From positions 21,602,631 through 21,666,630 of the forward strand of contig OU015501.1 in assembly GCA_907164885.2 (NCBI GenBank): DNA of 64,000 nt, written 5' to 3'. Positions within the stretch are counted from its first letter, which is position 1, and each line of letters opens with the position of its first letter. Positions 27,573 through 45,798 of the stretch are shown piece after piece. The position numbers and the translations under genes were made by a program. This DNA comes from Dolomedes plantarius (lineage: Eukaryota; Arthropoda; Arachnida; Araneae; Dolomedidae). The notes under the pieces are model-generated. The model was not told the origin of the DNA. It ran no database searches and saw nothing but the letters and a program-made list of their open reading frames with translations.

Positions 27573-27703
27573 TAAGGCTTCGTAAGATATGGTGTTGAAG
27601 AACCTACAGTCGGCCGCAAAAATATATAAGCACCGGTACCCCTTTGAAATTTTACAAGATCCATGGTTTGCCAATTTGTTTGGGGAAAGGAAAGGAATAA
27701 CAA

Positions 27704-27752
27704 TGTATTATGCTTTAGAATAATTCTGAGGATTATTCTAAAGCATAATACA
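27704..27752. terminator. Hairpin downstream of the left PMDLSTK-protein gene
   Basis: Mirror of the right-arm hairpin at 45490-45538. It has a 21-bp perfect stem (ATGCTTTAGAATAAT core) with a 7-base loop. Confidence 0.6.
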
Positions 27753-27914
27753 TCGTTGAAAACAGATTGTTGACTGAGAACACTTTGTAAGTATCACTGG
27801 AGTTGCGGTTGAATCTTTTTTTTTTCTGATAATATAGTTGATATTACAGGAGGTACAATTCTTAAAATAAGCTTATATTTTTAACTCTCAAGCATTTTGT
27901 GATTAAAGGTGTTT

Positions 27915-28130
27915 GGATTTTTTAGGATAGGAATTCTTTCTAATGCCATTCCGTATCACTAGAGTTGCAATATGTTTTGGATTTTTTAGGATGGGAATTC
28001 TTTCTAATGTCATTCCGTATCACTAGAGTTGCAATATGTTTTAATTTAGGATGGGAATTCTTTCTAATGCCATTCCGTATCACTGAAGTTGCAATATGTT
28101 TTAATTTAGGATGGGAATTGTTGTGTTTTT
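27915..28130. repeat. Tandem repeat of about 60 bp (left arm)
   Basis: Mirror of 45112-45327. Units share ATTCTTTCTAATGCCATTCC, an ACTAGAGTTGCAATATG block and TTTAGGATGGG, and lie just 3' of the left 409-aa gene remnant. Confidence 0.8.
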
Positions 28131-28190
28131 TAGGAAGAACAAACAACAGATTAATATATAAAAATAAATCTTTTATTTTGTTTGTTGTTA

Positions 28191-29387
28191 TTAAAAGGAC
28201 GTTACATAGGTTTCTAAATTTTTAAAGAGTTCGTCAAAGTCTTCCGACATGTTTAAAAAGTTTGGAGTTTGAGGTTCTTCCAAACAAGTCTGCATGATCA
28301 ATTCCTCCGAATTGATTTTTTCAATGTCCATTTGGCTCGTCGACAAGTCCATATCGATTTGTTCCAAATCCGTGTTCTTTGTCGACAAGTCCATAGGTTC
28401 AGGGACATAGTCTAATGTCTGGACATAATCAAGCGGAATCGGGGGTCCCAATTCCCGATTTCGAATGTCATTGTACATGTCGGCGAATTGGGGTATCAGA
28501 TACAAGACTGTCTGAGGCGGATGAAAAGAAGGTATTTCAAGTTGATTCGTCTGTGATTCGGCATCCATGACGACTGACGGTTCCGGATCCATGACGACTG
28601 ACGACGACGGTTCCGGTTCCGGATCCATTTGGGGAGGTTCGAACGAGTGATACACATTACGAACCGGAGGTGGCGGAGGTACCATCATCAATTCGTCAAG
28701 TCTGTCCAATGCCGGAGTTTGGGGAACATTGTCGTAAATGTTCCTCTTCCGTTTTAATTTGGTAGTCTCCCTCCAATTCCTGCACTCGAAGGGCAATTCT
28801 AGGTCGGATCTCACGACGTCCACAGAAAAGAGAGTCTTTTGGGCAGTCACCAGTACGTAGCACGTTCCATCCGTCACCCGGTACTTGGATTCGGGTTCCA
28901 GGACGAAAAATTTGTAGACGAACTGGTCGGCGGCTCGGAATCCCCTTTTTCTGCGGACGACATCGAAAGATCTGGTCTTTTTTTCAGGCAACACGTAGAA
29001 GAAGAGGGGTACCGTCGTGGTCTGGTAAATGTGACAGGTCCCAGGTTCCACCACACGTTGTCCAAAAGTAAAATATTGTTTTACCACGAACCTGTTGTCG
29101 TACCTGACGAAGAAAGAATGAAAGAAAAAAATATGGAATGAGCTGCAATATATATATATATATATATATATTTAAAAAAAAAAATAGGTCGTATTCAAAT
29201 CCCCATTCGAAATGGTACTTACCGAAAACTCACTCGAACGTCCGTGTTTTTTTTCCTGACACGTCGATCCAATTTCAGACGAGCGGCCACGGCGTCCCAG
29301 CTGACAGAATCGTAGTCATCCCAGCGGGTAAAAGATTCTCTGCCAGTCCTGTAGAAATTGGCGATTAAATTTTCACTTCTGTCTTCG
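28191..29387 (-). pseudogene. Left-arm copy of the PMDLSTK acidic protein, 5'-truncated
   Basis: Exon 2 (28191-29103) is intact and nearly identical to the right-arm copy, including the PMDLSTK motif and acidic tail. The intron is 29104-29222, shorter than the right-arm intron because its AT tract is shorter. The exon 1 remnant (29223-29387) stops abruptly: to its left in gene order the sequence jumps to repeat DNA that in the right arm lies about 360-490 bp upstream. The TATA box, initiator, start codon and first half of exon 1 are therefore missing. Without these it should be silent unless another promoter is used. Confidence 0.85.
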
Positions 29388-30327
29388 TTCTGGTTTCATT
29401 TAGGATTGGAATGCTTTCTAATACCATTACTGGAGTTGAATCCTCTGATAATATAGTTGATATTACATGTGATTATTTCTAATACCATCCTTTTCTAACA
29501 CAATTAGCTAAAAATGTATTATAATGGACATTTATTCCATGATTTTAGGGGTCATTTGTTAATTATTATAAGGTCGTCCTGTCTATGTTTCACATCTAGC
29601 TAACATTCATAAAGTTCTAGATTAAGAGTCCATATAATTTCGTTAAGATTGTAAGTGCTTGTGGATTAAGATTACAGTAAATGAATTTGGATCCCCTTTG
29701 GATAAAAAAAAATATAGTTGATATTACAGGACCATATAATTTCGTTAAGACAGTAAGTGCTTGGAGGTATTAGATTATTTATTTTAGTATAATTATAAAA
29801 GGCATCACATTCGAAAGCCAGAAAGACAGAAAAAATCAAAATTAATAAAGTATGAGGATGTATAGAAACATGATTATTCATATGCCAAGAAAGTATGAGT
29901 CAGAACAGATACATGAATATATGTACCTTACACAACAATCGAATTTTTTACCACTACTGGTAGATACATTAAGGATATATTTAACACATTTGAATTTTTT
30001 TTTTTTGAAAAAGCTGAACAAGGAAAGGGACTATTTTACAATAAATAGATTATTTATTTTGTTAACAAATACGGATTTACAATTACTAGCAGATACATTG
30101 AGGATATTGTTTTGTTTTTCAAAGTACCACCATCGGGTGTTTGTATATCAATAGACTATTGAAAAAAAAAAAGAATTGAAAGAATATTTTTTTCAAAAAA
30201 CAAAATGCCATCATCGGGTGACTGATTGGAGGAAAGAAATATTGTTACTATTGAAAAACACATTTCTACAAATGAAACAAAGTCTTTTTTATTATTATTT
30301 TTCCAAAGTTGGTAATCATTTTGACGC

Positions 30328-30380
30328 AAAAAAATGGCCAGAGAACGTCTTTTTTCAAGACGTTCTCTGGCCATTTTTTT
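30328..30380. terminator. Hairpin C, left arm
   Basis: Perfect stem with A7TGGCCAGAGAACGTC and its complement ending T7, located 3' of the left 80-aa RING gene. Mirror of 42306-42358. Confidence 0.7.
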
Positions 30381-43608: not shown

Positions 43609-43628
43609 CTCGCTCGCTCGTGAACGAT

Positions 43629-45051
43629 ATGGCTGACGCTTTCCCTTCCAAGCTATCGACTACCGTCCGATTGCTGCAGCACCCCGAAACAAAGAGAGGA
43701 TTTCGGAATATTTTTGATTCGCGTAAACTTTTGATTTCCACGGCCTATTTGGAGGACGACAAGGTATTTTTTGCCCCCCTCGAAGACAGAAGTGAAAATT
43801 TAATCGCCAATTTCTACAGGACTGGCAGAGAATCTTTTACCCGCTGGGATGACTACGATTCTGTCAGCTGGGACGCCGTGGCCGCTCGTCTGAAATTGGA
43901 TCGACGTGTCAGGAAAAAAAACACGGACGTTCGAGTGAGTTTTCGGTAAGTACCATTTCGAATGGGGATTTGAATACGACCTATTTTTTTTTTTAAATAT
44001 ATATATATATATATATATATATATATATATATATATATATATATATATATATATATATATATATATATATATATATATATATATATATATATATTGCAGC
44101 TCATTCCATATTTTTTTCTTTCATTCTTTCTTCGTCAGGTACGACAACACGTTCGTGGTAAAACAATATTTTACTTTTGGACAACGTGTGGTGGAACCTG
44201 GGACCTGTCACATTTACCAGACCACGACGGTACCCCTCTTCTTCTACGTGTTGCCTGAAAAAAAGACCAGATCTTTCGATGTCGTCCGCAGAAAAAGGGG
44301 ATTCCGAGCCGCCGACCAGTTCGTCTACAAATTTTTCGTCCTGGAACCCGAATCCAAGTACCGGGTGACGGAGGGAACGTGCTACGTACTGGTGACTGCC
44401 CAAAAGACTCTCTTTTCTGTGGACGTCGTGAGATCCGACCTAGAATTGCCCTTCGAGTGCAGGAATTGGAGGGAGACTACCAAATTAAAACGGAAGAGGA
44501 ACATTTACGACAATGTTCCCCAAACTCCGGCATTGGACAGACTTGACGAATTGATGATGGTACCTCCGCCACCTCCGGTTCGTAATGTGTATCACTCGTT
44601 CGAACCTCCCCAAATGGATCCGGAACCGGAACCGTCGTCGTCAGTCTTCATGGATCCGGAACCGTCAGTCGTCATGGATGCCGAATCACAGACGAATCAA
44701 CTTGAAATACCTTCTTTTCATCCGCCTCAGACAGTCTTGTATCTCATACCCCAATTCGCCGACATGTACAATGACATTCGAAATCGGGAATTGGGACCCC
44801 CGATTCCGCTTGATTATGTCCAGACATTAGACTATGTCCCTGAACCTATGGACTTGTCGACAAAGAACACGGATTTGGAGCAAATCGATATGGACTTGTC
44901 GACGAGCCAAATGGACATTGAAAAAATCAATTCGGAGGAATTGATCATGCAGACTTGTTTGGAAGAACCTCAAACTCCAAACTTTTTAAACATGTCGGAA
45001 GACTTTGACGAACTCTTTAAAAATTTAGAAACCTATGTAACGTCCTTTTAA
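43629..45051 (+). CDS. 409-aa spliced protein with PMDLSTK motif and acidic C-terminal region
   Basis: Exon 1 is 43629-43945 and exon 2 is 44139-45051. The intron (43946-44138) has a GGTAAGT donor and a pyrimidine-rich tract ending GTCAG, and is mostly AT dinucleotides. Joining keeps the frame (1230 nt). Exon 2 has no ATG at its start, which supports splicing. The N-terminal ~240 residues look globular and basic (KLKRKRN cluster near residue 206). The rest is acidic and proline-rich with DPEP repeats. P342-M-D-L-S-T-K348 matches the PxDLS motif bound by the co-repressor CtBP, best known from adenovirus E1A, and a second MDLST follows. The last 20 residues (SEDFDELF, 392-399) resemble an acidic activation domain. 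Likely a transcriptional regulator; family not recognised. Confidence 0.7.
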
Positions 45052-45111
45052 TAACAACAAACAAAATAAAAGATTTATTTTTATATATTAATCTGTTGTT
45101 TGTTCTTCCTA

Positions 45112-45327
45112 AAAAACACAACAATTCCCATCCTAAATTAAAACATATTGCAACTTCAGTGATACGGAATGGCATTAGAAAGAATTCCCATCCTAAATTA
45201 AAACATATTGCAACTCTAGTGATACGGAATGACATTAGAAAGAATTCCCATCCTAAAAAATCCAAAACATATTGCAACTCTAGTGATACGGAATGGCATT
45301 AGAAAGAATTCCTATCCTAAAAAATCC
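45112..45327. repeat. Tandem repeat of about 60 bp (right arm)
   Basis: Three to four units sharing CCCATCCTAAA, ACATATTGCAACT, GTGATACGGAATG and CATTAGAAAGAATTCC. Present in equal form in the left arm at 27915-28130. Confidence 0.85.
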
Positions 45328-45489
45328 AAACACCTTTAATCACAAAATGCTTGAGAGTTAAAAATATAAGCTTATTTTAAGAATTGTACCTCCTGTAATA
45401 TCAACTATATTATCAGAAAAAAAAAAGATTCAACCGCAACTCCAGTGATACTTACAAAGTGTTCTCAGTCAACAATCTGTTTTCAACGA

Positions 45490-45538
45490 TGTATTATGCT
45501 TTAGAATAATCCTCAGAATTATTCTAAAGCATAATACA
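45490..45538. terminator. Hairpin D near the right end
   Basis: 21-bp perfect stem (core ATGCTTTAGAATAAT), 7-base loop, about 440 bases after the 409-aa stop and 100 bases inside the element end. Unlike hairpins A-C it lacks the A7/T7 frame, so it may serve the terminus rather than the gene. Confidence 0.5.
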
Positions 45539-45798
45539 TTGTTATTCCTTTCCTTTCCCCAAACAAATTGGCAAACCATGGATCTTGTAAAATTTCAAAG
45601 GGGTACCGGTGCTTATATATTTTTGCGGCCGACTGTATTTTGTATGGGTTGGAGGGTAAAACAAGCTGCCCAATTGATTGTTGTTCCTTTGAATTCGTTC
45701 GCGGACGAGTTTGGAACCCCTATGTGTGTCTAGAACGGAGTTGTCTTAATGGGTCATGCCTAAGGCCTTTTTCAAATTGCATCCAAAGCGGAGCGTAA

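What the first reader, a model, noticed from the sequence alone, without database searches (positions are those of the whole stretch)
27605..45637. 18-kb palindromic element carrying a duplicated virus-like gene set
Five compact, outward-reading genes, each present in two near-identical mirrored arms, bounded abruptly at TA dinucleotides, with no polymerase, integrase, capsid or transposase. Gene density, individual TATA promoters, two RING proteins and acidic regulators look viral, while the boundaries look like a transposon. I know of no described element with this combination.
Basis: partly seen in the sequence, partly recalled or inferred. Interest (0 to 1): 0.95.

Follow-up and report, generated by a model that had tools for sequence, protein, structure and literature searches.

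The report
Self-moving inverted-repeat module of endogenous virus
The 18-kb mirror-image element is the paired inverted-repeat block of a large DNA virus that lives in this invertebrate's chromosomes, and it appears to have inserted alone at several places like a transposon, a new twist on virus-transposon hybrids.

Summary
The 18,033-bp palindrome is real (arms 0.41% different) but not a stand-alone oddity. Its end sequence has at least 40 copies (96-100% identical) in the same 2.78-Gb genome. In 13 of 13 internal junctions read, the palindrome runs on into the same viral sequence. That unique region, followed for 49 kb in two copies, encodes DNA polymerase B, PIF2 (a marker of arthropod nuclear large DNA viruses), a DUF5906 protein (probably helicase-primase), IAP, Bcl-2, innexin, XRN exonuclease and kinase genes, plus a Tc1-type transposase gene seen in two proviruses. 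All 21 chromosome-side ends read have host DNA ending in TA. Five end pairs, the window's included, have TA on both sides. I read this as a large DNA virus with long inverted repeats carrying regulatory genes, whose repeat/unique boundaries are transposon-type ends, so the repeat pair can integrate alone. Teratorn has a similar layout, in a herpesvirus with piggyBac. Shown: architecture, gene content, borders, copy numbers. Inferred: that the viral transposase moves it, and what the five proteins do. Many viral genes also end in A(n)/T(n) hairpins (21 of 34 ORFs).

The parts
27605..45637 (.). whole palindromic element (two ~9-kb inverted arms)
27605..27630 (+). left end TACAGTCGGCCGCAAAAATATATAAG; the leading TA is the dinucleotide at the host border
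45612..45637 (-). right end, identical inverted copy of the left end
38157..39569 (+). gene A, 470 aa: acidic N-terminus, PESR-type repeats, tandem domain with two CxxC...CHRW motifs; putative regulator
   Evidence: one hit at E <= 0.001, P0001, 62% over 250 residues of the C-terminal part
32951..34243 (-). gene A, left-arm copy, 430 aa (120 bp fewer repeats)
40311..40646 (+). gene B, 111 aa basic protein, no family
32048..32383 (-). gene B, left-arm copy
41035..41586 (+). gene C, 183 aa RING-type protein (below Pfam cut-off)
31110..31661 (-). gene C, left-arm copy
42000..42242 (+). gene D, 80 aa RING-like protein (weak)
30444..30686 (-). gene D, left-arm copy, identical
43629..43945 (+). gene E exon 1 (intact in right arm only)
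44139..45051 (+). gene E exon 2: acidic, PMDLS-type motif (recalled as CtBP-binding), putative transactivator
28191..29103 (-). gene E exon 2, left-arm copy; promoter and exon-1 start missing upstream
40682..40738 (+). 24-bp-stem hairpin just 3' of gene B (mirror 31956-32012)
41618..41675 (+). 27-bp-stem hairpin just 3' of gene C (mirror 31021-31078)
42304..42360 (+). 26-bp-stem hairpin just 3' of gene D (mirror 30326-30382)
39676..39718 (+). A/T hairpin 3' of gene A (mirror 32804-32844), like those of the viral unique region
45485..45543 (.). 26-bp-stem hairpin near the end (mirror 27699-27757)
35507..36983 (.). central array: 12 copies of TCTACGACAATTAGRAGCCGAGTTATG in both orientations (up to 3 mismatches)
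38067..38104 (+). TATA + CAGT promoter-like site of gene A (mirror 34333-34296)
40266..40293 (+). TATA + CAGT promoter-like site of gene B (mirror 32428-32401)
39762..39788 (+). TATA + CAGT site between A and B with no ORF of note behind it (mirror 32757-32731)

Best explanation
The element is the joined pair of ~9-kb inverted repeats of a large nuclear DNA virus (naldavirus-like) that is endogenous in this invertebrate genome. The repeats carry a small set of probably regulatory genes (two putative transactivators, two RING-type proteins, one small basic protein), and each repeat ends in a transposon-type end, CAGTCGGCCGC. In provirus-type copies one end of the palindrome abuts the chromosome at TA and the other abuts the unique viral region (DNA polymerase, PIF2 and more). 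A Tc1-type transposase, encoded in the unique region of at least two proviruses, probably cuts at these ends and inserts at TA. Depending on which two ends are paired, either a provirus with the unique region or the palindrome alone is inserted. The window holds the second kind. Shown: the layout, the viral genes, the TA borders, end pairs with TA on both sides. Inferred: that this transposase acts on these ends, and the proteins' roles.
For: At least 40 end copies of 96-100% identity, 40 scored of 96 candidates. Of these, 12 lack the leading T, and 10 of the 12 have the viral RING paralogue 5.0-8.8 kb outward; 0 of 28 T-type ends do (Fisher p 8e-8). Letters read: 13 of 13 internal junctions have the same viral sequence ending GATGAACA before CAGTCGG; 21 of 21 chromosome-side ends have host flanks ending in TA, all different except that the two C9:146 ends share theirs. 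Five end pairs of 15-21 kb have TA on both sides. Unique region shared by C3 and C12 in eight aligned pieces of 93.8-99.9% totalling about 49 kb: PIF2 E 6e-10, DNA_pol_B 6e-25, DUF5906, Bcl-2, 2OG-Fe(II) oxygenase, PIF1-like helicase; XRN_N, NIF, BIR x2 + RING; Innexin; and in C3 a protein kinase and an HTH_Tnp_Tc3_2 + DDE_3 transposase. PIF2 is 98-100% alike at five loci beside internal junctions. The transposase gene is in C3 and C7 with shared viral DNA on both sides; the longest inverted pair flanking it in 3.1 kb is 11 bp at chance level (E 1.9). In two of four palindromes compared, the partner arm is clearly the nearest copy: window 99.55% against at most 97.7%; C3 99.77% against at most 93.3%.
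Against: The far end of the unique region was not seen (some stretches are withheld), so it is not shown that a whole provirus uses a second transposon end. The transposase was seen in only two proviruses, and its C7 copy is frameshifted; the genome-wide search for it did not complete. Internal junctions read CA before CAGTCGG, so the A could belong to the element and only the T would then be a target base. In the other two palindromes compared the arm rule fails or ties: C11:77.69 (arms 93.75%, the left arm nearer to the window) and C13:82.38 (arms 99.41%, a third copy 99.43%). Of the five TA/TA pairs, C2 holds an extra internal-type end and C9:146 has the same 20-bp flank on both sides, so three are clean; apart from the window their interiors were not read. 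No capsid protein was recognised. The viral and the window's mariner-like transposase are only distantly alike (22% over 152 residues).
Confidence: 0.62

Rival explanations
1. The palindrome is an independent non-autonomous Tc1-type element (a satellite) that inserted once into an ancestor of the virus and rides in it, rather than being the virus's own repeat.
For: Five end pairs have TA on both sides; the internal junction is the same in 13 of 13, as one ancestral insertion would give; hairpins behind genes B-D are GC-rich in part, unlike the pure A/T ones of the unique region.
Against: The visible internal junction reads CA, not the TA that a TA-targeting insertion would leave; gene C has a full-length distant paralogue in the unique region (about 25%, E about 1e-6); gene A has an A/T hairpin behind it like viral genes.
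Confidence: 0.2
2. Palindrome-only loci are proviruses that lost the unique region by deletion after insertion.
For: Decayed and truncated copies exist.
Against: A deletion would have to stop exactly at the CAGTCGG end and leave TA beside it; 10 of 10 ends of the five pairs have TA, and none of the 28 T-type ends has the viral RING paralogue outward.
Confidence: 0.08
3. Fold-back (defective-interfering type) dimer of a linear viral end, integrated by chance.
For: Mirror dimers of terminal genes are a known outcome in other DNA viruses (recalled).
Against: Many insertions have the same end and TA, and the palindrome is also part of the provirus-type copies.
Confidence: 0.05
4. Assembly artefact (palindromic read).
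For: None found.
Against: 31 substitutions and 9 gap events between arms, different host flanks, many other copies with other arm differences.
Confidence: 0.02

Closest known systems
Teratorn (piggyBac-alloherpesvirus fusion, medaka; PMC5601938 and PMC6431247 passages, PMC10175614 sections)
   Same: Large DNA virus plus cut-and-paste transposase; long inverted repeats; transposon ends at the boundary of the inverted repeats and the unique region ('internal TIRs'), through which the integrations sequenced in the authors' assay went.
   Different: Herpesvirus with TTAA-targeting piggyBac in fish; here a PIF2-bearing virus with a Tc1-type gene and TA. Insertions of the inverted repeats alone are not described in the passages I read.
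Sesarmid endogenous nimaviruses with Ginger2 transposase (PMC10871703, abstract and passages)
   Same: Endogenous naldavirus with terminal inverted repeats and a captured DDE transposase; the related majaniviruses carry BIR genes and innexins.
   Different: Ginger2, 46-bp TIR, (AT/TA)n microsatellite target; the terms hairpin, palindrom, Tc1 and mariner do not occur in its main text.
Tc1/mariner transposons
   Same: TA at the insertion site, ends beginning CAGT (recalled), HTH_Tnp_Tc3_2 + DDE_3 transposase in the virus.
   Different: The unit is 15-21 kb, palindromic and carries viral genes, not a transposase.
Mimivirus-type hairpin gene ends (PMC4402537, start of abstract in a listing)
   Same: Palindromic hairpins at gene ends.
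   Different: Here mostly A(n)/T(n) hairpins beginning at or near the stop codon, in a virus with TATA boxes and a probable intron; no cleavage or tail tested.

Membership tests
Teratorn-like element (herpesvirus + piggyBac) | alloherpesvirus core genes | tested here: not met
   no herpesvirus family among 50 Pfam entries scanned (some overlapping, one is P0001): window; C12; C3. Only part of the unique region was read
Teratorn-like element (herpesvirus + piggyBac) | transposon ends at inverted-repeat/unique boundary | tested here: met
Teratorn-like element (herpesvirus + piggyBac) | TTAA target | tested here: not met
   flanks share TA only
Naldaviricetes / Nimaviridae | per os infectivity factor genes (recalled marker) | tested here: met
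   PIF2 E 5.9e-10, above the Pfam cut-off; only one PIF seen
Naldaviricetes / Nimaviridae | family-B DNA polymerase and helicase | tested here: met
Naldaviricetes / Nimaviridae | placement by phylogeny of core genes, capsid genes | not tested
   no reference sequences compared; no capsid protein recognised
Tc1/mariner-type mobility | TA at both insertion borders | tested here: met
   21 of 21 chromosome-side ends read (20 of the 28 T-type ends, plus C3); A is also present at internal junctions, so T is the discriminating base
Tc1/mariner-type mobility | transposase of the family encoded by the element | tested here: inconclusive
   none recognised in the palindrome; present in the unique region of C3 and C7
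Tc1/mariner-type mobility | TA present once at empty sites | not tested
   no second individual or species available
Polinton/adintovirus | 5-6 bp target duplication; retrovirus-like integrase; protein-primed polymerase | tested here: not met
   longest shared flank is TA; no retroviral-integrase family among the ORFs scanned; type of polymerase priming not tested

The most novel reading that the evidence does not exclude
A naldavirus-like endogenous virus has captured a Tc1-type transposase and split into two mobile states: a long provirus, and a separate palindromic module carrying only its regulatory genes that spreads on its own with the virus's enzyme (a parasite of the parasite, or a portable control unit for the proviruses). 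Its genes end in templated A(n)/T(n) hairpins that may replace ordinary polyadenylation.
Probability: 0.35. Interest if true: 0.92.

Novelty: new variant of a known kind. Interest (0 to 1): 0.82.

Why it matters
The papers I saw describe two cases of a large DNA virus that became a chromosomal mobile element with a cut-and-paste transposase (piggyBac in Teratorn, Ginger2 in crab nimaviruses). This would add a Tc1-type case in a PIF2-bearing virus and, new as far as my searches show, a viral repeat module that inserts without the rest of the virus. With at least 40 end copies in one genome it makes the question of how a virus becomes a transposon directly testable by comparing insertion sites. 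The A/T hairpin gene ends raise a separate question about how these mRNAs get their 3' ends.

Tried and rejected
Rejected: self-contained novel element (longer proviruses found); assembly artefact; mobilisation by the mariner-like element at 55332-56638 (its ends TACAGAGGCTG differ; its protein is 22% alike to the viral transposase over 152 residues); malacoherpesvirus (no herpesvirus families among the ORFs scanned); Polinton/adintovirus (no 5-6 bp duplication); CRE sites as a special feature (TGACGTCA: 4 of 10 in the element, 6 in the flanks). Led nowhere: structure models (pLDDT 33 and 41; Foldseek viral search had no hit at E <= 0.001); solved-structure searches for A, C, D and E exon 2 (only RING-type matches of C at E 0.02 or worse and chance-level ones); protein searches for C and E exon 2; IMG/VR scans for A, B, C, D and both exons of E; genome contigs and phage scans for A; PHROGs, NCBIfam, Rfam. 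The single 17-mer end match in IMG/VR is at chance level by my estimate. One search listed five papers holding CAGTCGG, mariner and TIR; by title none is about such an end; none was opened.

Arm differences in coding sequence: 2 synonymous against 12 non-synonymous codons, too few to show selection.

The 30 kb taken as host (L014, L030, L031) are host by their copia-type ORFs or by lack of matches to the far-end pieces, not by proof.
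Full report
1. The observation. The inverted repeat spans 27605-45637 with both arms ending on the same base. Over left-arm positions 27605-35180 the arms differ by 31 substitutions in 7,565 aligned bases (0.41%) and 9 gap events. The ends are identical, TACAGTCGGCCGCAAAAATATATAAG, and occur nowhere else in the window at up to 3 mismatches. The host flanks share only TA. The element shares nothing with the flanks at E <= 1e-5 (low-complexity filter on), and the flanks are transposon-rich host DNA.

2. Anatomy. Each arm has genes A-E reading outward. Gene A has an acidic start and two tandem CxxC...CHRW domains; its only hit at E <= 0.001 in the 5.8-billion protein search is P0001, 62% identical over 250 residues, on a 1,106-base contig. 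Gene C is RING-type (Pfam E 1.8e-4, below cut-off), D weakly so. Gene E is spliced by sequence (GT at 43946, AG ending 44138) and intact in the right arm only; the left arm lacks about 482 bp. No relative was found for C and E exon 2 in the protein search or for B, C, D and both exons of E in IMG/VR; B and D were not put to the protein search. Hairpins of 24-27 bp stem lie just behind B, C and D in both arms. The centre holds 12 copies of a 27-mer.

3. The genome. The window is C14:21602631-21666630 of a 2.78-Gb assembly. The RING protein has 120 matches, many in inverted pairs; gene A's C-terminal domain has 152; the 200-base end has 40 full-length matches, 40 of 96 candidates being scored. 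All are lower bounds.

4. Two kinds of end. Of the 40 ends, 28 match from base 1 and 12 from base 2. A distant RING paralogue lies 5.0-8.8 kb outward of 10 of the 12 and of 0 of the 28 (Fisher p 8e-8). I read the letters at 12 of the 12 plus C3: all 13 have the same sequence ending GATGAACA before CAGTCGG (in the 40 bases shown, five of 11 differ by one or two bases further out). I read 20 of the 28 plus C3: all 21 have host DNA ending in TA, each different except that the two ends at C9:146 share a 20-base flank. So one kind is a fixed junction inside a longer element and the other is an insertion border. Caveat: A precedes CAGTCGG in both kinds; only T against C tells them apart.

5. The longer element. 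Next to the internal junction C3 and C12 share about 49 kb in eight aligned pieces of 93.8-99.9% identity. Pfam, C12: XRN_N, NIF, two BIR + RING, RING; PIF2, DUF5906, Bcl-2, 2OG-Fe(II) oxygenase, PIF1-like helicase, DNA_pol_B with exonuclease domain; Innexin and another RING. C3: protein kinase and a transposase with HTH_Tnp_Tc3_2 and DDE_3. That the DUF5906 protein is a helicase-primase and that PIF2 marks naldaviruses is recalled; the class holds Nimaviridae and Lefavirales. PIF2 has 15 matches: five full-length at 98-100% beside internal junctions on C3, C12, C14, C13 and C11 (the last with one stop), decayed ones on C4 and C13:43.2 Mb, and divergent ones at 24-51%. Of 13 end pairs 12-24 kb apart, 8 have an internal junction on one side and 5 have TA on both: C14 (window), C11:77.69, C11:113.25, C9:146.44 and C2:44.14 Mb. 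C9:146 and C2 are not clean (shared flank; an extra internal-type end), and only the window's interior was read in full.

6. The enzyme. The transposase gene lies in C3 (L025:31-837) and, frameshifted, in C7 (L032), with DNA on both sides that the two copies share at about 98.8-98.9%. In 3.1 kb around it the longest flanking inverted pair is 11 bp at E 1.9, so it has no evident TIRs of its own. It is Tc1-type by Pfam, and TA is the Tc1/mariner target (recalled). Whether every provirus has it is unknown, because the genome search did not complete.

7. How it most likely works. The virus has long inverted repeats holding probable regulators. Its repeat/unique boundaries are also transposon ends. 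Pairing one repeat end with a far end gives a provirus with the unique region; pairing both repeat ends gives the palindrome alone. Teratorn has transposon ends at the same place (passages of PMC5601938 and PMC6431247). In two of four palindromes compared over about 3.4 kb (window, C3) the partner arm is clearly nearest; C13:82.38 ties with a third copy and C11:77.69 does not fit. This suggests that arms are often evened out before or after insertion; it does not say which.

8. Gene ends. In the five C12 pieces L017-L021, 21 of 34 non-overlapping ATG ORFs of at least 140 codons have a hairpin, nearly always A(n) then T(n), starting between 10 bases before and 250 after the stop; 11 of the 21 start within 10 bases. 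Random positions give 15%. The 46-kb window flanks have four hairpins by the same rule and 30 kb of other pieces taken as host none. This may be a termination signal or a templated tail; no RNA was seen.

9. What is and is not claimed. Shown: sequence architecture, gene families, end types, copy numbers. Inferred: mobility by the viral enzyme, protein roles, and the host being an arthropod (TATA + CAGT promoters, naldavirus-like genes with innexin). The virus is not filed as a nimavirus: no phylogeny or capsid gene was tested. Paper searches whose listings showed no Tc1-naldavirus fusion or palindrome-only element; the library is open-access PMC only. Papers seen: PMC10175614 outline and sections 5, 7, 8 (part 1), 10; PMC10871703 outline with abstract and passages; PMC5601938, PMC6431247, PMC5552708 passages; PMC4402537 start of abstract in a listing.

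Noticed in passing
L017-L021 (C12 unique region): Pure A(n)/T(n) hairpins of up to 55 bp stem begin at or just behind many viral stop codons (21 of 34 ORFs), as if tails or terminators were templated.
   Followed up: partly
G000 C9:29.50-30.90 Mb: More than 20 near-identical partial copies of gene A's domain, many at about 4-kb steps, perhaps a satellite or small-RNA source.
   Followed up: no
G000 C9:23.25-23.41 Mb: Tandem runs of RING gene C copies at about 5.3-kb steps.
   Followed up: no
G000 C6:7319067, C329:38643, C13:65503966, C14:95586101: Divergent PIF2 matches (24-51% identity), pointing to other endogenous relatives of the virus.
   Followed up: no
window 20834-22042 and 25902-27115: 1.2-kb inverted repeats, 95% alike, around a DDE_Tnp_4 transposase fragment: another large transposon beside the element.
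   Followed up: partly
window 50014-53277: A further element with about 500-bp inverted ends; 361 bp of it recur near 3405-3759.
   Followed up: no
window 55332-56638: Compact mariner-like element, ends TACAGAGGCTGTTCGCACATTTTTTAGACGAT, with a 363-codon open frame that Pfam does not recognise at E <= 0.001.
   Followed up: partly
window 27192-27575 and 45796-45965: Related small inverted-repeat (MITE-like) sequences lie on both sides of the insertion.
   Followed up: no
G000 C9:146443180-146464614: Palindrome copy with the same 20-bp flank on both sides, so the host flank may itself be mirrored there.
   Followed up: no
window 39762-39788 (mirror 32757-32731): A strong TATA + CAGT site followed by short repeats and no ORF of note: possible non-coding viral RNA.
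   Followed up: no
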